Shown: piece after piece, positions 1 through 8,113 of the stretch
Layout of the letters: each line of letters opens with the position of its first letter
Numbering within the stretch: the first letter of the stretch is position 1
DNA from: Pseudomonadota bacterium
Lineage (GTDB): Bacteria; Pseudomonadota; Gammaproteobacteria; Burkholderiales; SG8-39
Direction of reading: 5' to 3'
Assembly: GCA_021811085.1 (NCBI GenBank)
Contig: JAJZPQ010000005.1
Coordinates: 60,480-124,479 of the forward strand
DNA: 64,000 nucleotides
Made by a program: the position numbers and the translations under genes
Notes under the pieces: model-generated
What the model was told of the DNA's origin: nothing
Databases searched by the model: none
What the model saw: only the letters and a program-made list of their open reading frames with translations

Positions 1-38
1 GTATGGTCTGGCTCAAACACAGCGTGCTCGGAGCATGA
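1..38 (+). CDS. 3' end of an upstream gene (truncated by window edge)
   Basis: An open frame entering from the left edge ends with a TGA at 36-38 and encodes a tail reading MVWLKHSVLGA. Its stop overlaps the ATG of the ABC transporter gene in an ATGA arrangement. Such overlap is typical of translationally coupled genes, so an unknown gene probably precedes the transporter in one operon. Too little protein is present to name a family. Confidence 0.4.
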   Translation, partial: MVWLKHSVLGA

Positions 39-1702
39 GCGATCTGCGGGCGCTGCTCGCCCTGGCCGCGCCGCAGCGCGCGCTGCTCGCGCTCGGCACG
101 GTGCTGATGCTGCTCGAGAGCGCGGCGGCGCTGCTGGTGCCCTGGGCCGGCGGTTTGTTGACCGAGGCCATGCTGCGCTCCGCCGAGCCGACGCCGGGCG
201 GCGCAGCAGCGGCCGGCGTCGGCGTCGTACTCGCAGGCATGCTGGGCTTATTCGCGCTGCAGGCGCTGCTCAAGTTCGGCAACACCTATATCCTCGAAAA
301 TGCGGCCGACAGGATCGTCTCCGACCTGAAGATCAGGCTGTACGATCATCTGCAGGCGCTGCCCCTGACCTACTATCACGAGCGGCGCCTGGGCGATACG
401 CTCGCGCTGCTCACCAACGACGTCTATGTCCTGAGCGGTTTCATGAGCGGTACGGCGCTAGCGCTGGTGCCGCTGCTGTTCACCGCGAGCGGGGCGGTGA
501 TGCTGATGTTTGGCATCCGACCCGCCTTGGCGCTGTCGGCAGTGATCCTCATCCCTGTGTTTTATCTGCTGACTAAAGTCGTCGGCCGCCGCATCCGGCC
601 GCTCGCGGCGCAACTGCAGGAGGAGTACGCGACTGCGATTGCTATCGCCCAGGAAAACCTGAGCATGCTGCCAGCGATAAAAACCTTCACGCGCGAAGCG
701 CAGGAATCAGCGCGTTACCGCGAGCAGATCGGCCGCGTTTTTCAATTGAACGTAAGGCAGCGCCGAATCTACGCGGCGCTGGAGCCGGCGTCGCAACTCA
801 TCGCGGCAGCAGGCATCGTGCTGGTGCTGGCGCTGGCGAGCTCGGATCTGGGGGAAGGCAGGCTGCTGCCCTCGCAATTGGTGAGTTTCCTGCTGTACGC
901 GGCCTTGCTTACGCGCCCGGTTGCCGGGCTCGCCGATGTTTACGGCCGCACGCAAATGGCGCGGGGCGCATTCGCCAGGCTGCAGCAGGCGATGGAAGAG
1001 CCGCCGGAAGCAGCAGGGCATGCCGGCATCGCGCTTGCGGCGGTGCGCGGCGAGATCGAATTCCGCGCAGTGCACTTCGGCTATGGCGGCGGGCGCCCAC
1101 CCGCGTTGGAGCAGCTCGACCTGCATATCGCCGCGGGCGAGACCATTGCCATCGTCGGTCCTAACGGTGCGGGCAAAAGCACGCTCGGGCATCTGCTGCT
1201 GCGCCTGCATCTGCCGTCCGCGGGGCAGATCCTGATCGACGGCGTCGACATCGCTGGCGTGTCGCTCGCGAGCCTGCGCCGCCAGATCGGCGTGGTGCCG
1301 CAGCATGTGCTGCTGTTCAACGCTTCGGTGCGCGACAACATCGCCTACGGGCGGCCCGATCCCAGCCAGGCCGAAATCGAAAGCGCGGCCGTTGCCGCCC
1401 GGGCCCACGATTTCATCACGGCCCTGCCCCAGGGCTACGATACGCTGATCGGCGATCGCGGCGTGAAGCTCTCGGGCGGGCAACAGCAGCGCCTCTCGCT
1501 CGCGCGCGCGCTGCTCAAGGACCCGGCCATCCTGATACTCGACGAAGCCACGGCGATGTTCGATCCTGCGGGCGAAGCGGAATTTCTGCATGCCTGCCGC
1601 GATGCGCTCCGGCGCCGCACGGTGCTGCTGATCACGCATCGGCCGGCGAGCCTGGCGGTGGCGGACCGGGTCGTGCGATTGGATCAGGGGCGGATAATCT
1701 AG
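35..1702 (+). CDS. ABC half-transporter (membrane domain fused to ATPase), candidate lasso-peptide exporter
   Basis: A 555-residue MsbA/MdlB-type half transporter that would work as an inner-membrane homodimer. Hydrophobic segments fill about residues 1-310. The nucleotide-binding domain follows, with Walker A GPNGAGKST at about 375, signature LSGGQQQR at about 479 and Walker B ILILDEAT around Asp503. The substrate cannot be read from sequence. Exporters of this shape are the D component of lasso peptide clusters, and a lasso locus begins about 790 bases downstream, but a convergent cysC lies between. It could equally belong to the operon entering from the left, whose last gene overlaps its start. 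The ABC exporter call is firm; the lasso role is inference. Confidence 0.88.
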   Translation: MSDLRALLALAAPQRALLALGTVLMLLESAAALLVPWAGGLLTEAMLRSAEPTPGGAAAAGVGVVLAGMLGLFALQALLKFGNTYILENAADRIVSDLKIRLYDHLQALPLTYYHERRLGDTLALLTNDVYVLSGFMSGTALALVPLLFTASGAVMLMFGIRPALALSAVILIPVFYLLTKVVGRRIRPLAAQLQEEYATAIAIAQENLSMLPAIKTFTREAQESARYREQIGRVFQLNVRQRRIYAALEPASQLIAAAGIVLVLALASSDLGEGRLLPSQLVSFLLYAALLTRPVAGLADVYGRTQMARGAFARLQQAMEEPPEAAGHAGIALAAVRGEIEFRAVHFGYGGGRPPALEQLDLHIAAGETIAIVGPNGAGKSTLGHLLLRLHLPSAGQILIDGVDIAGVSLASLRRQIGVVPQHVLLFNASVRDNIAYGRPDPSQAEIESAAVAARAHDFITALPQGYDTLIGDRGVKLSGGQQQRLSLARALLKDPAILILDEATAMFDPAGEAEFLHACRDALRRRTVLLITHRPASLAVADRVVRLDQGRII

Positions 1703-1746: not shown

Positions 1747-2307
1747 TCAGCGCTGCATCTTCAGGAAACTGACGATGGTCTCGGCGGCCTCAAGCGCAGA
1801 TGTCAGCGTGGTGTCGATGCGAATTTCCGGATTTTCCGGCGCCTCATAGGGGGAATCGATGCCGGTGAAATCCTTGAGCTCGCCGCGCCGCGCTTTTTTG
1901 TAGAGACCTTTCGGATCGCGGGCTTCCGCGACCGCGATCGGGGTATCGACAAAGATCTCGATAAACTCGCCCGGACCCACGAGGCTGCGCGCCATGGCTC
2001 GCTCACGGCGAAATGGCGAAATGAATGCCACGATGACAATCAGCCCGGCGTCGACCATCAATGCCGCGACCTCGGCTACCCTGCGGATGTTTTCGACGCG
2101 GCCGGAGGCGCTGAATCCGAGATCCTTGTTGAGCCCCATGCGTATATTGTCGCCATCGAGGAGATAGGTATGCCTGCCCAGGGCGTGCAGCCGCATATCG
2201 ACGAGATTGGCGATGGTCGATTTGCCTGCTGCCGATAGGCCGGTAAGCCACAGAATCCTGGCTTCCTGGCCCTTCAGGTCCGAACGGGATTTCTTGTTTA
2301 CGTCCAT
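1747..2307 (-). CDS. cysC: Adenylylsulfate kinase (APS kinase)
   Basis: A 186-residue stand-alone APS kinase that phosphorylates adenosine 5'-phosphosulfate with ATP to give PAPS, the sulfate donor for reductive assimilation or sulfotransfer. Family marks are the P-loop GLSAAGKST near residue 23, the DGDNIR motif, the FISPFR segment, and the C-terminal [12 protein letters not shown] and FTGIDSPYE motifs. Length is normal and no ATP sulfurylase domain is fused. It is transcribed against both neighbours and is flanked by the ABC transporter and the lasso locus. No sulfotransferase gene was seen nearby, so its link to either neighbour is unclear. Confidence 0.93.
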
Positions 2308-2490
2308 GGTGTGCGAGCGGATATTATCGATTTGAAGCGGGAACCAATGCGTGGCCGCCGGATGCCTGGCGCGAACTGCGTAAGGTCTGTGGAATTGTTG
2401 TCTGCCATAATGACACAGCCCGAATCGTACTATATTGGGCCGGTCATTCTACTACCGGCGCCGGGGTAAACTGGCGCACCGAACTCATTG

Positions 2491-3792
2491 ATGGAACTGC
2501 CAAGTACGTCCAACCGGCGTGAGAACCTGAGCCCGGGCGCGCGCGCGCTGCTCGCGCTTCTTCGGCCTGCTGGTGGGGCAGCGGCCGCCCGGGTGCAGGA
2601 ATTTCCGCCGCAGGTCTGGAATGAAATTCTCGAGCTGGCGCAACGGCACGGCGTCGCGCCGCTGCTAGATCGCGCCCTGCAGTCGGCTGCCGCGCCCGCC
2701 GCGTTCCCGCAGCGAGTGCGCACGCGCCTCGCGGAAGAGCGCCGCGCGACCGCGCTCGTCAATCTGCGCAATCTAGGCGAATTCCGGCGCATCGCGCAGG
2801 CGCTGCGCGAGCGGGACATTCCGGTCATTGCGCTCAAGGGACTGCACCTCGCCGAGCTCGTGTACCGCGATATCAGCCTGCGGCCGATGATCGATGTGGA
2901 TCTTCTGGTATCGCGCTCGCAGCGCGAGCAGGCGATTGCGGTTTTGCGCCGCCACGGTTATGGTTGCGAAGAGGAAACCCTGGAGTACGCTTTCCAGGAA
3001 CGCCGGCCCGACGCCGCCGAAGCGATGCTCGACGGAAAATACCATGTCGGTCTGATCCATCGCCAAGCCGGCACCGTGGTCGAAATACACTGGACGCTGG
3101 ACGATCCGCTCCACCCCTACGGTCCGCCGTTGGCGGACATCTGGCGCAGCGCCGTTTCGGCTCGCCTCGGCGACGCCGAAACGCTCATCATGTCGCCGGA
3201 GTTCCTGCTGTTGCACGTTTGCGCACACCTTGCCTACAACCATATTTTTGCGTTCAGCCTGCGCGCGCTATGCGACATCGCCGAGATCGTGCGCGCGCAT
3301 CCCGAGCTCGATTGGACTGTGGTGGTTAACCAGGGTCGGCGCCACGGCTGGAGGATTGGTGTCGCGGCGGCCTTGCGGCTCGCGCGGGACCACCTCGGTG
3401 TACAGATATCCGCGGATGCGCTCGCGGCACTTGGCGGCAATGCGCTCGATGCCGGACTGCTCGCCGAGGCGCTGGTGCATCTGGTCGCTCTTGCCGAGAT
3501 TCCGGACGAAATGCGCGCCGCGCCCAATCTCATGGCTTTCGCGGGCAGGCGCGGGCTGGTGGCAAAGATTGGGATCGCTTGGAACAGGCTATTCGTGCCG
3601 CGCGCGGAGATGGCGTTGATCTACGGCATCCCGGAACATTCGGCGCGCCTAAGTCTTTATTACGCGGTCCGGCTGCGCGACCTCGTTCGAACCTACGCCG
3701 CGAGCGCCTGGGCGTTCAGCGTATCGGACCCGCAGCTGGCGGCAACTACTGCACGTCATGCGCGGCTGGCGAAATGGATCAACGAGGCCTGA
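2491..3792 (+). CDS. Nucleotidyltransferase family protein (NTP_transf_5 type) of the lasso locus
   Basis: A 433-residue protein with the features of the uncharacterised NTP_transf_5 nucleotidyltransferases. It has an ALKGLHLAELVY segment near residue 116 and the acidic metal-binding motif LRPMIDVDLLV near residue 132, then a helical C-terminal half with conserved histidines (HVCAHLAYNH). I chose the ATG at 2491; a TTG at 2488 is directly adjacent. Genes of this family recur in lasso peptide clusters, where they are thought to modify the peptide. Here it is the first gene of a same-strand series B2, cyclase, precursor, kinase, RRE. The substrate and the exact reaction are not known. Confidence 0.78.
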   Translation: MELPSTSNRRENLSPGARALLALLRPAGGAAAARVQEFPPQVWNEILELAQRHGVAPLLDRALQSAAAPAAFPQRVRTRLAEERRATALVNLRNLGEFRRIAQALRERDIPVIALKGLHLAELVYRDISLRPMIDVDLLVSRSQREQAIAVLRRHGYGCEEETLEYAFQERRPDAAEAMLDGKYHVGLIHRQAGTVVEIHWTLDDPLHPYGPPLADIWRSAVSARLGDAETLIMSPEFLLLHVCAHLAYNHIFAFSLRALCDIAEIVRAHPELDWTVVVNQGRRHGWRIGVAAALRLARDHLGVQISADALAALGGNALDAGLLAEALVHLVALAEIPDEMRAAPNLMAFAGRRGLVAKIGIAWNRLFVPRAEMALIYGIPEHSARLSLYYAVRLRDLVRTYAASAWAFSVSDPQLAATTARHARLAKWINEA

Positions 3793-3877: not shown

Positions 3878-4387
3878 ATGGGGGCCTCTCCACCGCATCC
3901 GGGCAACCGGCGCCTCTTCCGCATGATGAATGGCATCACCACGAAATGGGCAAGCTTCCACGCGCTTACCTGGCCTGAGCGGCGCACACTGCTCGCCGCG
4001 ATAGGGTGGCTGCCGTTGTTCTCTCTTGGGCTGCGCGTCCTCGGGCCGCGCCGTTTTCAGGTTTGGCTGCAACGCGATAACCCACCGATCGGGAGCAAGG
4101 TTTCGCTCGATGACATCGTTCGCATCGCCACGCTGGTCAATATCGCTGCCCGGCAGGCTCCTGTCCCCGCGACCTGCCTCACACGTTCCTTGCTGCTGGG
4201 CTGGGTGTTGCGGCGTCGGGGTGTCGCCAACCAGTTGCGTATCGGCGTGCGTCTGACCCAGGGTGCCCTCGACGCCCATGCCTGGGTCGAATACGCGGGC
4301 ATCCCCATCAACGACCGACCGGATGTGGGCGAGCAGTTCGCGCCGTTTGCCGAAGTCCTGCTTCCCGGGGCCTTCCAGTCGCCATGA
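3878..4387 (+). CDS. Lasso peptide biosynthesis B2 protein (leader peptidase, transglutaminase-like fold)
   Basis: A 169-residue member of the B2 family, the cysteine protease that removes the leader peptide from a lasso precursor once the RRE protein B1 delivers it. The expected Cys-His-Asp triad is visible: Cys in PATCLTRSLLLGWVL (about residue 105), His in LDAHAWVEYAG (about 135), and Asp in PINDRPD. An AAGG Shine-Dalgarno sequence lies about 8 bases before the ATG at 3878; an in-frame ATG at residue 16 is an alternative start. The gene ends in ATGA overlap with the asparagine synthetase-like cyclase, which indicates coupled translation. B1 (RRE) is encoded separately at 7841-8113, the split arrangement usual outside the classic microcin J25 type. 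Confidence 0.88.
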   Translation: MGASPPHPGNRRLFRMMNGITTKWASFHALTWPERRTLLAAIGWLPLFSLGLRVLGPRRFQVWLQRDNPPIGSKVSLDDIVRIATLVNIAARQAPVPATCLTRSLLLGWVLRRRGVANQLRIGVRLTQGALDAHAWVEYAGIPINDRPDVGEQFAPFAEVLLPGAFQSP

Positions 4388-6276
4388 GCGGTATCGCCGG
4401 AATCATTCATTTTGACGGCGCGCCCGTTGCGCCGGGGCTGGTGGAGAAGATGACCAAGGCCATGGCGTACCGTGGCCCGGACGGCATCAACCACTGGGTC
4501 AAAGGCGCGGTGGCGTTAGGGCAGTGCATGCTACGCACTACACCAGAATCACTCGAAGAAACGCAGCCGCTCACCAACGAGGACCAAAGCCTGGTGCTCG
4601 TTATGGATGGCCGGGTGGACAACTGGGACGAGCTACGAAAGGAATTGCTGGGGCGTGGCGTGGTGCTGCGGAACCGGTCCGATGCCGAGTTAGTGCTAAG
4701 GGCTTTCGAAAGCTGGGGTCAAGAATGCTTGCGCCACATTGATGGCGATTTTGCGCTGGTGATCTGGGATGCGCGGCGGCAAATGGCATTCTGCGCGCGC
4801 GATCGCATGGGTAACAAACCGTTCAACTATCACTGGAATGGAAAAACGCTTGCCTTTGCCTCCGAACTGCACGCGATTCTGGCGATGCCCTGGGTGAAGC
4901 AGGAACTCAATGAGGGCATCGTCGCGGATTATTTGAACCAAAACTGGCTTTCCCGGGACGAAACGCCATGGAACGGAATCTCGCGCTTGGTGGCAGCACA
5001 TTGGATGGAAATTGCGCACGAAGGTGTGCGCTCGGGCGAATATTGGCAGCCAGAACTTCATTCGCCATTGCGGTATCCGGTCGACGATGAGTATGTGGAG
5101 CATTATCGCGCGTTGTTTGCCGACACTGTCCGCCGGATGTCGCGTTCGCAGCAGAAGCTGGCGATTGAGGTAAGTGGCGGGCTCGATTCATCCGCCATCT
5201 TTTCGGTTGCGGCGAAACTGCGCCGCGACCAACATTTTCTGGCCCCGGATCTTGCCGGTTATACCCTCGCGTTTGACGACGATCCCGACGCCAATGATCT
5301 GGAATACGCCCGTGCGGTAAGGGAGCATGTGGGAATCCCCGTTCATGAAGTGAATCCGAGGAAACGGCCATTGTCCTGGTATCAGGATCGAGCGCGAATC
5401 TATAGGGAATTTCCGGGGTATCCAAACGGGGTCATGGGCGCAGACATCAGGGAATTGGCTCGGGAGCAGGGATGCCGGGCGCTTCTAGTAGGAGTGGGAG
5501 GCGATGAATGGCTGGGCGGCGACCTTACTTACTATGCGGAGGAGCTGGCATTGGGGCAATGGCGAAATGTTTATGGTTTCTTGAAGACAGACTGTCGGGA
5601 GGTCGGAACGCTGCGCGCCTGCTGGCGGTTGGCTCGTTATGGCGTAGTGCCGCTGTTGCCGAATTGCGCCAAAGACATTGTGCGGAAGGCGCTCGCAATT
5701 CACAGGCGGCACACGACCGATTTCGAGGGATGGCTTTCGCCGCAATTCCATCAGATTGCCTCACAACGCATGAGGAAACCCGCCGTTTCGTTTGACGGCG
5801 CGCGCTTCGGCCGTGCTGGACAGCGTCGGCAGTATTGGATATTGCACGGGCCTTATTCCGCTTTGGCGCGGGAGATGGAAGAGCGCCTTGCCGCGAATCT
5901 GGGCATGGAACTGCGACGACCGTTCTGGAATACTGCGATGGTGCAGTTTGCCTTTTCAATCCCTGAGCGATTTCGGCGTCTCGGGGGGGAAGATAGGGTC
6001 TTGCATCGCCGCGCCATGCAAGGTCTGTTGCCCACGCTTGTGCTGGACAGGAAAATCAAGGCGGACTTTATGATCGCTTTCAGAAGGCACGCAGAGGATA
6101 TGAAACTAGCCATGGCGGTCGAGACAGTGCAACAACAGCGGCGCATGTGGGTTCTGCCGGAACTAATGCAAAGGACGTATACTGAGTTTGGAGATAAGTC
6201 ATTCGAAGGGGTGCCGGAATGGCTGGTTTGGAGTTTGTTTGGCTGCAGCGCGCTGGCTGCTGGCAGCGACAGCTGA
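4384..6276 (+). CDS. Asparagine synthetase-like lasso cyclase (C protein)
   Basis: A 630-residue protein of the asparagine synthetase B fold. An N-terminal glutamine-amidotransferase-like domain (about 1-210) is followed by an ATP-pyrophosphatase synthetase domain with the PP-loop SGGLDSS at about 264-270. The N-terminus begins MSGIAGI, so the catalytic Cys2 of true glutamine-dependent enzymes is absent. That fits lasso cyclases, which adenylate an Asp/Glu side chain of the core and join it to the free N-terminus instead of using glutamine. It overlaps the B2 gene by 4 bases and lies 56 bases upstream of the precursor. The family call is firm; the macrolactam role rests on context. Confidence 0.88.
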   Translation: MSGIAGIIHFDGAPVAPGLVEKMTKAMAYRGPDGINHWVKGAVALGQCMLRTTPESLEETQPLTNEDQSLVLVMDGRVDNWDELRKELLGRGVVLRNRSDAELVLRAFESWGQECLRHIDGDFALVIWDARRQMAFCARDRMGNKPFNYHWNGKTLAFASELHAILAMPWVKQELNEGIVADYLNQNWLSRDETPWNGISRLVAAHWMEIAHEGVRSGEYWQPELHSPLRYPVDDEYVEHYRALFADTVRRMSRSQQKLAIEVSGGLDSSAIFSVAAKLRRDQHFLAPDLAGYTLAFDDDPDANDLEYARAVREHVGIPVHEVNPRKRPLSWYQDRARIYREFPGYPNGVMGADIRELAREQGCRALLVGVGGDEWLGGDLTYYAEELALGQWRNVYGFLKTDCREVGTLRACWRLARYGVVPLLPNCAKDIVRKALAIHRRHTTDFEGWLSPQFHQIASQRMRKPAVSFDGARFGRAGQRRQYWILHGPYSALAREMEERLAANLGMELRRPFWNTAMVQFAFSIPERFRRLGGEDRVLHRRAMQGLLPTLVLDRKIKADFMIAFRRHAEDMKLAMAVETVQQQRRMWVLPELMQRTYTEFGDKSFEGVPEWLVWSLFGCSALAAGSDS

Positions 6277-6332
6277 GTACTGGGCGTGCGTCTCGATGAA
6301 TTGGCTCGGATAAGATAGATCTGGAGGTCAGC

Positions 6333-6740
6333 ATGAAGCAAGAAAAGATGTCACGAGAACCCAATCCGGTGAAACCGATCCTGGATTCGGCTCCCAAGAA
6401 GACGTATCAGCGACCCGTCCTGCGCACTTTTGGTTCGCTTCATCGTATGACCCAGGGTTCCGCAGGCAAGGCCAGTGACGGTGCCGGATTCAAAAGACCT
6501 GCTGGTTCCGATCGAAGCATCAAGGAAAACATTGTCAGAATCGGAGATCATCCGCTTGGAATTGGCCTCTACCTGTTTGACTACAAGCCGGGATTCGGTG
6601 GTGCATCAGGAAATGGCAGGCAGTTTGGCGTTATGGCTGATGAGGTTGAAGCGGTGTTGCCCGAGGCGGTATCAAGCCATCCAGATGGCCATAAGATGGT
6701 CAATTACGCGATGCTGGGGATAGACAATCCTGCTCAATGA
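6333..6740 (+). CDS. Lasso-type precursor fused to an S74 self-cleaving chaperone domain
   Basis: A 135-residue protein with two parts. Residues 1-41 form a lasso leader with the RRE/B2 recognition pattern Y25-x2-P28-x-L30-x3-G34 and the diagnostic Thr40 at position -2. The predicted core begins at Gly42: GSAGKASDGAGFKRPAG, with Asp49 at core position 8, allowing an eight-residue Gly1-Asp8 ring. Residues 59-130 resemble the Peptidase_S74 / intramolecular chaperone domain of phage tail fibres, with SDRSIKENI, GLYLFDYKP, RQFGVMADEVEAVLPEAV and MVNYAMLGI. The Ser59-Lys64 pair has the spacing of the endosialidase Ser-Lys dyad (Ser911/Lys916), so cleavage just before Ser59 is predicted. A strong GGAGG at 6323-6327 supports the start. 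Both domain calls are pattern-based. Confidence 0.82.
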   Translation: MKQEKMSREPNPVKPILDSAPKKTYQRPVLRTFGSLHRMTQGSAGKASDGAGFKRPAGSDRSIKENIVRIGDHPLGIGLYLFDYKPGFGGASGNGRQFGVMADEVEAVLPEAVSSHPDGHKMVNYAMLGIDNPAQ

Positions 6741-6919
6741 GCCTGGCAGAAACGCGGGATATGTTGTTCCCGTCGGAGAATTTGATCCAGGCTAACCCAG
6801 ACCGCGTTCCGCAATTGAGGCATGACATATAGGCTGGAAGGTTGATGCCAGGCTACTCTGATGGAAAAAGTACAGCGCGTGAAGTAGGGCAAGCGGCCTC
6901 GCGCGATCATCCTGATTCG

Positions 6920-6938
6920 TTTCCGTCGTCAACGGAAA
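6920..6938 (+). terminator. Short hairpin between precursor and kinase genes
   Basis: A 7-base perfect stem (TTTCCGT / ACGGAAA, loop CGTCA) is followed by TTT. It sits just ahead of the kinase start in the 205-base gap after the precursor gene. It could be a weak terminator or attenuator that makes the precursor transcript more abundant than the downstream enzymes. The stem is AT-rich and weak, so the call is tentative. Confidence 0.3.
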
Positions 6939-6945
6939 TTTCGGA

Positions 6946-7854
6946 TTGCAGTCTGCGTGTGCTTGGTCGGGATACAGAATAGTGTCCGGTTTCAGTCTCA
7001 CCCATTCGCGGCGGCAAGTGCCTTTGAGTATTTTGCCATTCCACGAATGGGTTTGCCCGGACGGTACTTTATGGACGCGGTTCTTCCGGACAAATGCGGG
7101 TTACCTGCTGCGTTTTCCTGAACTGGCCGACTTTCGGGTTTCGCCCGATGGTTTGTCTGTGGCTTGTTCGCTCGCACCGGGTGTGACCGATTCGACCGCG
7201 CATCACCTCTATCTGAACCATGTGTTACCTTTAATACTAAGCAAGCAAGGGAAATTGGTTTTTCATGCGAGCGCTGTTGAAATCGCAGACAGTGCGGTTG
7301 CCTTTGTGGCAGTGTCCGGCCGCGGCAAGTCGACCTTGGCGGCCAGTTTCGCAATAAGCGGGTTTCGTTTCCTGAGTGACGATGGGCTAGTGTTAGAGCC
7401 ATCCGGCGACGGTTATCAGGCGTTGGCCAGCCATCCTTCCATTCGCCTATGGGAAGATAGCGAGAATGCGCTGATTCCTGCCGAGGTGGAGACTGCGCCA
7501 GCACTGAGGTTTACTTCCAAAGCTCGTTTTCTGGCGGGCGAGAGTATCTCGTTTTGCGATAAGGTCCGGCCTTTGCGTCGGGTATATTTCTTGGGCGATG
7601 GCCGTACGCCGGAGATAATCTTCCAGCGCATGAACGCCGCGGAGGCTTTGGTTGAGTGGGTGAAGCATTCTTTCTTGCTCGATGTGGAAGAAAAGCCGCT
7701 ACTGGCTTCGCACTTCGATGAAGTGGCAAAATTGGCGAATCATCCGATTCACTACCGCCTCGATTATCCGCGTCGCTTTGAAGACTTGGTGCGTGTCCGG
7801 CAGGCCATTGCTGAGCATGCAACGGAAGAAGTGAAGACGCATGAACTTGACTGA
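6946..7854 (+). CDS. HprK-related lasso peptide kinase
   Basis: A 302-residue protein of the HPr kinase-like (HprK-related kinase A) family, with P-loop VSGRGKST at about 123-130 and the downstream FLSDDGLVLEP strand-loop. Homologues in lasso clusters (PadeK, ThcoK) phosphorylate a serine at the C-terminus of the precursor. The only in-frame start after the preceding stop that keeps the conserved N-terminal YRI strand is a TTG at 6946; a GTG at 6982 would shorten it by 12 residues. Its 3' end overlaps the PqqD-like gene by 14 bases. Which serine of this precursor is the target is not evident, because the S74 domain follows the core. Confidence 0.8.
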   Translation: MQSACAWSGYRIVSGFSLTHSRRQVPLSILPFHEWVCPDGTLWTRFFRTNAGYLLRFPELADFRVSPDGLSVACSLAPGVTDSTAHHLYLNHVLPLILSKQGKLVFHASAVEIADSAVAFVAVSGRGKSTLAASFAISGFRFLSDDGLVLEPSGDGYQALASHPSIRLWEDSENALIPAEVETAPALRFTSKARFLAGESISFCDKVRPLRRVYFLGDGRTPEIIFQRMNAAEALVEWVKHSFLLDVEEKPLLASHFDEVAKLANHPIHYRLDYPRRFEDLVRVRQAIAEHATEEVKTHELD

Positions 7855-8113
7855 CAAAGTGACCATCCCGGAGCAGGTGCTGGCACGGCAGGTCGGTGAA
7901 GAGACGGTGATTCTGGATCTCGCCAGCGGAACTTACTTCGGCCTGGACCCCGTCGGTGCGCGTATCTGGCAACTGTTGACTGAGGGCAAGACCATCGACG
8001 AGGTTTGCGCGACTATGCTTGCGGAATATGAAGTGACGCCGGAGGACCTCGAGCGCGACGTACTCAGGCTGGCGGAGGAACTGCGCGCGAAGCAGTTGAT
8101 CAGCCTTATCTAG
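7841..8113 (+). CDS. PqqD-like RRE protein (lasso B1)
   Basis: A 90-residue winged-helix PqqD-family protein that would bind the precursor leader and present it to the B2 peptidase and probably the kinase. The family pattern is clear: ETVILDLASGTYFGLDPVGA, then IWQLL, then a helical tail ending ELRAKQLI. It overlaps the 3' end of the kinase gene by 14 bases, consistent with coupled expression. It is the last gene of the locus, and the next gene lies on the opposite strand. HprK-like kinase plus PqqD pairs are often labelled an HPr-rel-A system; here they sit with complete B2, C and A components, which supports a lasso role. Confidence 0.86.
   Translation: MNLTDKVTIPEQVLARQVGEETVILDLASGTYFGLDPVGARIWQLLTEGKTIDEVCATMLAEYEVTPEDLERDVLRLAEELRAKQLISLI

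What the first reader, a model, noticed from the sequence alone, without database searches (positions are those of the whole stretch)
6333..6740. Lasso precursor fused to an S74 self-cleaving domain
Residues 1-58 read as a lasso leader plus core (Y25, P28, L30, G34, T40 at -2, G42 as core residue 1, D49 as core residue 8). Residues 59-135 read as a tail-fibre-type S74 chaperone with the Ser59-Lys64 dyad spacing kept. I know of no described lasso precursor with an autoproteolytic follower. It would need two cuts, B2 at the leader and S74 at the follower, to free a 17-residue peptide.
Basis: partly seen in the sequence, partly recalled or inferred. Interest (0 to 1): 0.95.

Follow-up and report, generated by a model that had tools for sequence, protein, structure and literature searches.

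The report
Lasso precursor with self-cutting phage domain
A bacterial gene cluster encodes a predicted lasso-peptide precursor fused at its tail end to a small phage-type domain that likely cuts itself off, which would free a 17-residue lasso peptide, and the same fusion sits beside lasso-type genes in several groups of proteobacteria.

Summary
ORF 6333-6740 is one protein: lasso leader (Y25, P28, T40 at -2), a core with Asp at position 8, and a C-terminal Peptidase_S74 domain from Ser59 (PF13884, E 2.6e-9, over cut-off). B2, cyclase C, PqqD/B1, an exporter and an HprK-type kinase surround it. It is a family: 1690 similar proteins, and 16 genome loci (Alpha-, Beta-, Gammaproteobacteria), 15 with C or B2 in reach and the other with the kinase. 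Across 130 rows T40, K64 and an acid at core position 7-9 never vary, Ser59 is Ser in 129 (Cys in 1), and the core varies freely. Eight S74-less relatives carry cores of 16-21 residues, like the fused ones, and one locus has a stop exactly at the Ser codon. Likely mechanism: B2 cut and ring closure in front, Ser-Lys self-cleavage before Ser59 behind. Cleavage is untested, and one finding speaks against it: the C-terminal coiled coil that MyRF's S74-type domain needs to trimerise and cleave is missing. Searches of the open-licence PMC library showed no paper on lasso peptides with S74.

The parts
6323..6327 (+). GGAGG, likely ribosome-binding site of the precursor gene
   Evidence: read from the sequence, 5 bases before the ATG
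6333..6455 (+). lasso leader, residues 1-41 (Y25, P28, G34, T40 at -2)
   Evidence: Y25, P28, T40 identical in 130 of 130 rows; profile matches TbiA leader (E 0.55)
6456..6506 (+). predicted lasso core, residues 42-58 (17 residues; G1, D8)
   Evidence: acid at core position 7-9 in 130 of 130 rows; 129 distinct cores in 130 rows
6507..6737 (+). Peptidase_S74 follower, residues 59-135 (Ser59 at 6507-6509, Lys64 at 6522-6524)
3878..4387 (+). lasso B2 leader peptidase (Cys in ATCLTRS, His in AHAW)
   Evidence: NF033537 E 1.3e-21, over cut-off
4384..6276 (+). lasso cyclase C (asparagine-synthase type; SGGLDS motif; starts MSG, no Cys2)
   Evidence: PF00733 E 1.8e-37; NF033535 E 9.7e-116 (below cut-off)
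7841..8113 (+). PqqD-type leader-binding protein (B1/RRE)
   Evidence: PF05402 E 1.2e-21; NF033536 E 7.7e-16 (below cut-off)
6946..7854 (+). HprK-related kinase
   Evidence: TIGR04352 E 2.4e-12 (below cut-off); match in 14 of 16 loci
6776..6979 (+). decayed C-terminal remnant of a methyltransferase gene found at this place in relatives
   Evidence: 59% identity over 68 residues, E 1e-17, one internal stop
35..1702 (+). ABC exporter
   Evidence: PF00664 E 1.1e-41, PF00005 E 6.7e-35; match in 11 of 16 loci
2488..3792 (+). NTP_transf_5 nucleotidyltransferase; a nucleotidyltransferase (PsmN) is known in the pseudomycoidin cluster (PMC9266682 passage)
   Evidence: PF14907 E 3.6e-60; match in 7 of 16 loci, some weak

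Best explanation
This gene encodes a predicted lasso-peptide precursor whose C-terminal Peptidase_S74 domain likely acts as a self-removing follower, cutting before Ser59 by its Ser-Lys pair so that, after predicted leader cleavage and ring closure by B2 and C, a 17-residue lasso peptide would be freed. Shown: the fusion, its place in a lasso cluster, the conservation of leader, ring acid and Ser/Lys across the family, and free variation of the core between them. Inferred: (1) the PqqD protein binds the leader and B2 cuts after residue 41; (2) C closes Gly42 to Asp49 (8-residue ring) while the follower hangs on the threaded tail as a large stopper; (3) the follower folds, Lys64 activates Ser59, and an N-to-O acyl shift (mechanism recalled) and hydrolysis release GSAGKASDGAGFKRPAG with a free C-terminus and a 77-residue follower; (4) the ABC protein exports the peptide. 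I expect the follower to keep the core out of action, or the tail in place, until maturation; this last role is the least supported step.
For: Dyad and context residues: S59 129/130 (+1 Cys), D60 128/130, K64 130/130, F82 and Y84 columns aromatic in 130 of 130, G99 129/130. By my mapping through the alignments these match MyRF S587, D588, K592, Y615, Y617, G635, whose mutation stops or lowers cleavage (PMC8326128 section 7; PMC3742443 passages, human numbering). The residue before Ser varies and is Pro in 15 of 130 rows; MyRF cuts Pro-Ser. Region identity: S74 73%, core 29%. S74-less relatives end where the cut would be: 8 cores of 16-21 residues against 14-24 (96 of 130 at 16-18) in fused ones; a pair from one genus, Aurantiacibacter, reads GDGGIMTMAM|SDP fused (L013) and GDGGFMTMV-stop (P0122). 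L017 has a TAG exactly at the Ser codon with the rest of the frame open. Some lasso peptides tolerate C-terminal protein fusions (passage in PMC13352647). C or B2 in reach in 15 of 16 loci.
Confidence: 0.62

Rival explanations
1. The follower is not cut off: the mature product is a lasso ring carried on a folded S74 domain (a lasso-tipped small protein), and the Ser-Lys pair is kept for the fold or because S74 domains in general keep it.
For: No trimer helix, while cleavage of MyRF needs the trimer; C-terminal fusions are tolerated by some lasso enzymes; 19 of 19 S74-only domains, most of them also short, keep the pair, with no cleavage shown.
Against: Eight S74-less relatives make stand-alone cores of the same length; L017 stops at the Ser codon. 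A carrier that is never cut would not obviously need Ser and Lys kept so strictly (argument, not a test).
Confidence: 0.2
2. The S74 part works as a chaperone or recognition handle for the maturation enzymes (kinase, methyltransferase, cyclase) and is removed by another protease, not by itself.
For: S74/ICA domains are intramolecular chaperones (PMC3742443 passages); HprK-type kinase in 14 and methyltransferase in 13 of 16 loci.
Against: Five S74-less precursors sit in clusters with the same kinase, methyltransferase and PqqD, so these enzymes do not always need it. I did not scan the loci for other proteases, so this rival is only weakly tested.
Confidence: 0.12
3. A phage tail-fibre fragment fused by accident, or an annotation or assembly artefact.
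For: S74 is typical of phage proteins.
Against: 1690 relatives of similar length, the same order of parts in separate assemblies, 73% mean identity of the S74 part; none of the seven neighbouring proteins scanned is a phage protein.
Confidence: 0.02

Closest known systems
Kinase-type lasso clusters (paeninodin PadeK/ThcoK, SyanK; pseudomycoidin PsmK/PsmN), seen as passages of PMC9266682
   Same: B1, B2 and C with a kinase, and in pseudomycoidin a nucleotidyltransferase, beside the precursor
   Different: those kinases act on a conserved C-terminal Ser of the precursor; here a 77-residue S74 follower comes after the core, and the last core residue is Ser in 6 of 130 fused and 0 of 8 S74-less cores
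Phage and MyRF S74/ICA autoproteases (endoNF, MyRF 7dc3)
   Same: Ser-x4-Lys pair at the domain start, D after Ser, aromatic pair, GV(M/I)A(D/Q)EV segment, an upstream partner to be released
   Different: no C-terminal coiled coil; what precedes it is a short RiPP core, not a beta-helix
Short S74 of PHROG 6121 (virion structural protein) and 4287 (DNA ejection protein)
   Same: first and third of the PHROG matches; the matched stretch ends 6 and 4 positions before the profile's end
   Different: stands at the end of profiles of 392 positions, not on a RiPP precursor
Follower-bearing RiPPs such as bottromycin (passage of PMC10885120)
   Same: a C-terminal follower is removed after modification
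   Different: bottromycin's follower is removed by a separate amidohydrolase; here the follower would be its own protease

Membership tests
Lasso peptide precursor | leader with YxxP motif and Thr at -2 | tested here: met
   Y25, P28, T40 in 130 of 130 rows; TbiA leader match (weak)
Lasso peptide precursor | core residue 1 with Asp/Glu at 7-9 | tested here: met
   acid at 7, 8 or 9 in 130 of 130; first residue Gly in 106, else A 9, S 8, N 3, P 2, K 1, T 1
Lasso peptide precursor | encoded with B1, B2 and C | tested here: met
   (window: all three); 16 loci: C 14, PqqD 13, B2 8 by tblastn
Lasso peptide precursor | threaded macrolactam product | not testable with these tools
   needs expression and mass spectrometry
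Pfam Peptidase_S74 domain | match over the curated cut-off | tested here: met
   37.7 bits, cut-off 22, positions 1-57 of 58
Trimeric ICA autoprotease (endoNF/MyRF) | Ser-Lys dyad, spacing 5 | tested here: met
   15 of 16 loci keep Ser and Lys, L017 has a stop at Ser
Trimeric ICA autoprotease (endoNF/MyRF) | C-terminal coiled-coil helix for trimerisation | tested here: not met
   last predicted helix 125-128, protein ends at 135; not filed as a member of this trimeric type
Trimeric ICA autoprotease (endoNF/MyRF) | self-cleavage | not testable with these tools
   experiment needed
PadeK-type phosphorylated lasso peptides | conserved C-terminal Ser of the core | tested here: not met
   last core residue Ser in 6 of 130 rows (window: Gly); 0 of 8 S74-less cores

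The most novel reading that the evidence does not exclude
A phage folding-sensor protease has been recruited, in a compact form without the trimer helix, as the follower of a whole class of lasso peptides: it would hold the tail through the ring as a giant stopper and cut itself off only once the lasso is made, so that a RiPP precursor carries its own release protease and folding checkpoint.
Probability: 0.3. Interest if true: 0.92.

Novelty: new variant of a known kind. Interest (0 to 1): 0.77.

Why it matters
Lasso precursors known to me (recalled) end with the core. A large class whose core is followed by a conserved self-cleaving-type domain would add a second, built-in proteolytic step to lasso maturation, would turn proteins now named 'tail fiber domain-containing protein' into lasso precursors, and would open many unseen lasso peptides to genome mining. 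It would also make it testable whether S74 domains can cleave without the trimer helix, and offers a traceless C-terminal fusion for lasso engineering.

Tried and rejected
Phage remnant: rejected; none of the seven neighbours scanned is a phage protein and it is the only S74 match in the genome. Lone freak: rejected. Kinase target at a C-terminal Ser, as in paeninodin: not supported, the last core residue is Ser in 6 of 130. Searching for more S74-less relatives: P0121 gave 4 proteins including itself, the L021 precursor gave only itself. Foldseek and VIA-align put only the MyRF ICA domain clearly ahead; endoNF's chaperone (3gw6) appears low and is not in the list of the second model, which does not exclude it. 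A protein comparison failed on coordinates and was not repeated. I did not scan the loci for proteases other than B2.

Papers: ten searches. 'Lasso peptide' with 'S74' gave 1 paper, on travel-related illness by its title; with 'endosialidase' 0; with 'precursor' and 'tail fiber' 2, both broad reviews by their titles. The looser searches listed only part of their hits. The RODEO lasso paper is not held, and most subscription papers are outside this library.

Rows: the 130-row counts use 120 listed of 1690 homologues and 10 of the 16 loci (L004, L006, L007, L008, L010-L013, L015, L016). L002, L003 and L005 were left out as the same as, or nearly the same as, P0041, P0067 and P0088; L009, L014 and L017 were left out too. 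All 16 were read for Ser and Lys.

Full report
What is there. The frame 6333-6740 (+) encodes 135 residues, with a GGAGG five bases before the ATG. Residues 1-41 read as a lasso leader, 42-58 as a core, 59-135 as Peptidase_S74. Pfam finds PF13884 at 59-113 with 37.7 bits against a cut-off of 22. NCBIfam's lasso_cyano leader model matches residues 22-41 below its cut-off. PHROGs give 21 families, most of them tail proteins, with a virion structural protein first and a DNA ejection protein third.

Surroundings. On the same strand lie an ABC exporter (35-1702), an NTP_transf_5 protein (2488-3792), B2 (3878-4387), cyclase C (4384-6276), then the precursor, an HprK-related kinase (6946-7854) and a PqqD-type B1 (7841-8113); an APS kinase lies on the other strand (1747-2307). 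B2 keeps Cys and His motifs, and C keeps SGGLDS and begins MSG rather than with a glutaminase Cys (the meaning of these motifs is recalled). Between precursor and kinase, 6776-6979 is a decayed end of a methyltransferase gene (59% identity over 68 residues with an internal stop). A match to that enzyme lies in 13 of 16 relatives, downstream of the precursor, with a broken frame in L003 and L010. It has a SAM-methyltransferase core with PRMT_C matches below the cut-off. This window's cluster seems to have lost one tailoring enzyme.

The family. A search of 5.8 billion proteins returned 1690 relatives with E <= 0.001 among 1711 candidates of similar length (120 listed). A scan of genome contigs gave 16 loci, among them Thiobacillaceae, Competibacteraceae, Burkholderiales, Mesorhizobium and Sphingomonadales by their record titles. 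In these 16, tblastn with the window's proteins and two relatives' methyltransferases finds C in 14, HprK-type kinase in 14, PqqD in 13, methyltransferase in 13, ABC in 11, B2 in 8; C or B2 in 15. The one without, L008, starts 130 bases before the precursor and has kinase and methyltransferase; L007 and L009 are also cut close to the precursor and L012 is only 3 kb long. In an even sample of 398 genomes of the phylum, 21 match the family profile: 3 carry leader, core and S74 (the own genome, G189, G146), one carries leader and core only (G185), and the other 17 match from profile position 38 or later, inside other proteins. Among 60 relatives 5 match: the own genome, G010 (full fusion), G015 (leader and core only), G031 (S74 remnant), G038 (S74 only).

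Conservation. In the 130-row alignment Y25, P28, T40, K64, H73, Y80, P110, A112 and V123 do not vary; the D49 column is D in 123 and E in 7; S59 is S in 129 and C in 1. Core length, from two residues after T40 to the residue before Ser, is 14-24 with 96 of 130 at 16-18, and 129 of 130 cores are distinct. Mean pairwise identity is 73% for the S74 part, 49% for leader residues 22-41, 29% for the core. That is the pattern of a precursor: constant handles, free cargo, here with a constant domain behind it. Much of the S74 domain is conserved, and S74-only domains elsewhere keep the pair as well (19 of 19 read by eye), so the invariant Lys and near-invariant Ser are not by themselves proof of catalysis.

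Natural variants without the follower. L021/L050 (G015) has the same kind of cluster but its precursor stops after SGSGIATEGASGMAMA. P0121 (G185), L053 (G146's cluster), L059 (G013) and L060 (G002) likewise end after cores of 17, 21, 21 and 20 residues, each followed by methyltransferase and kinase; P0122-P0124 are short precursors found by similarity to P0121 (their clusters were not read). The eight core lengths do not differ from the fused ones (Mann-Whitney p 0.96; so small a test has little power, and lasso cores in general have such lengths, recalled). The neatest case is L017: the frame runs through leader, core and S74, interrupted only by TAG at the codon where relatives have the catalytic Ser; it is a MAG and this may be a sequencing error. 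L020/L049 has leader and core, a stop, and a decayed S74. A tree of the methyltransferases needs 3 changes of the S74 label, at least 2 of them forced by well-supported branches, which fits one gain and two losses but does not show it; one row counted as S74-less, L053, is from G146, which also holds an orphan S74-fused precursor. So the follower is shared across Alpha-, Beta- and Gammaproteobacteria and dispensable in places.

The weak point. MyRF cleaves only as a trimer held by its C-terminal alpha4 coiled coil (passages and section 7 of PMC8326128). That helix does not exist here: the protein ends right after the conserved VNYAMLGI. Of the 19 S74-only domains, 18 also end within 21 residues of the domain (L043 has 32), and PHROG 6121 and 4287 end 6 and 4 positions after the match, so short S74 domains are common; whether they cleave is not known to me. 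If they cannot, the product would be a lasso carried on an S74 domain.

Relation to known things. It is a lasso precursor by every sequence feature I could test; the follower matches the Pfam domain but is not of the trimeric ICA type. Literature: ten searches in the open-licence PMC library showed no paper on lasso peptides with S74; three reviews were looked at by passage. Subscription papers are mostly outside this library, so novelty in print is likely, not proven. A source names two members 'tail fiber domain-containing protein' (P0027, P0088).

Noticed in passing
window 6776-6979 (+): Decayed C-terminal piece of a ~375-residue methyltransferase (PRMT_C matches below cut-off) that is found downstream of the precursor in 13 of 16 relatives; a lasso-associated methyltransferase family of unknown target.
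   Followed up: partly
L017:8231-8233: TAG stop exactly at the codon of the catalytic Ser of the follower, rest of the frame open: a possible natural 'pre-cut' precursor, or a sequencing error.
   Followed up: partly
L046:9282-9674 (G146): Orphan S74-fused lasso precursor about 200 kb from the genome's lasso cluster, which itself holds an S74-less precursor; it may be matured in trans.
   Followed up: partly
L049:8730-9160 (G031): Leader plus 24-residue core with two Cys, then a stop and a decayed S74 remnant.
   Followed up: no
window 1747-2307 (-): APS kinase (CysC) next to the cluster, also matched in L005, L059 and L060 (taken to be the same genus); relation to the lasso product unclear.
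   Followed up: no
P0029, P0057, P0059; P0036, P0037: Different S74-fused precursors listed with equal longest-contig lengths (4877 and 6507), suggesting several precursors in one cluster.
   Followed up: no
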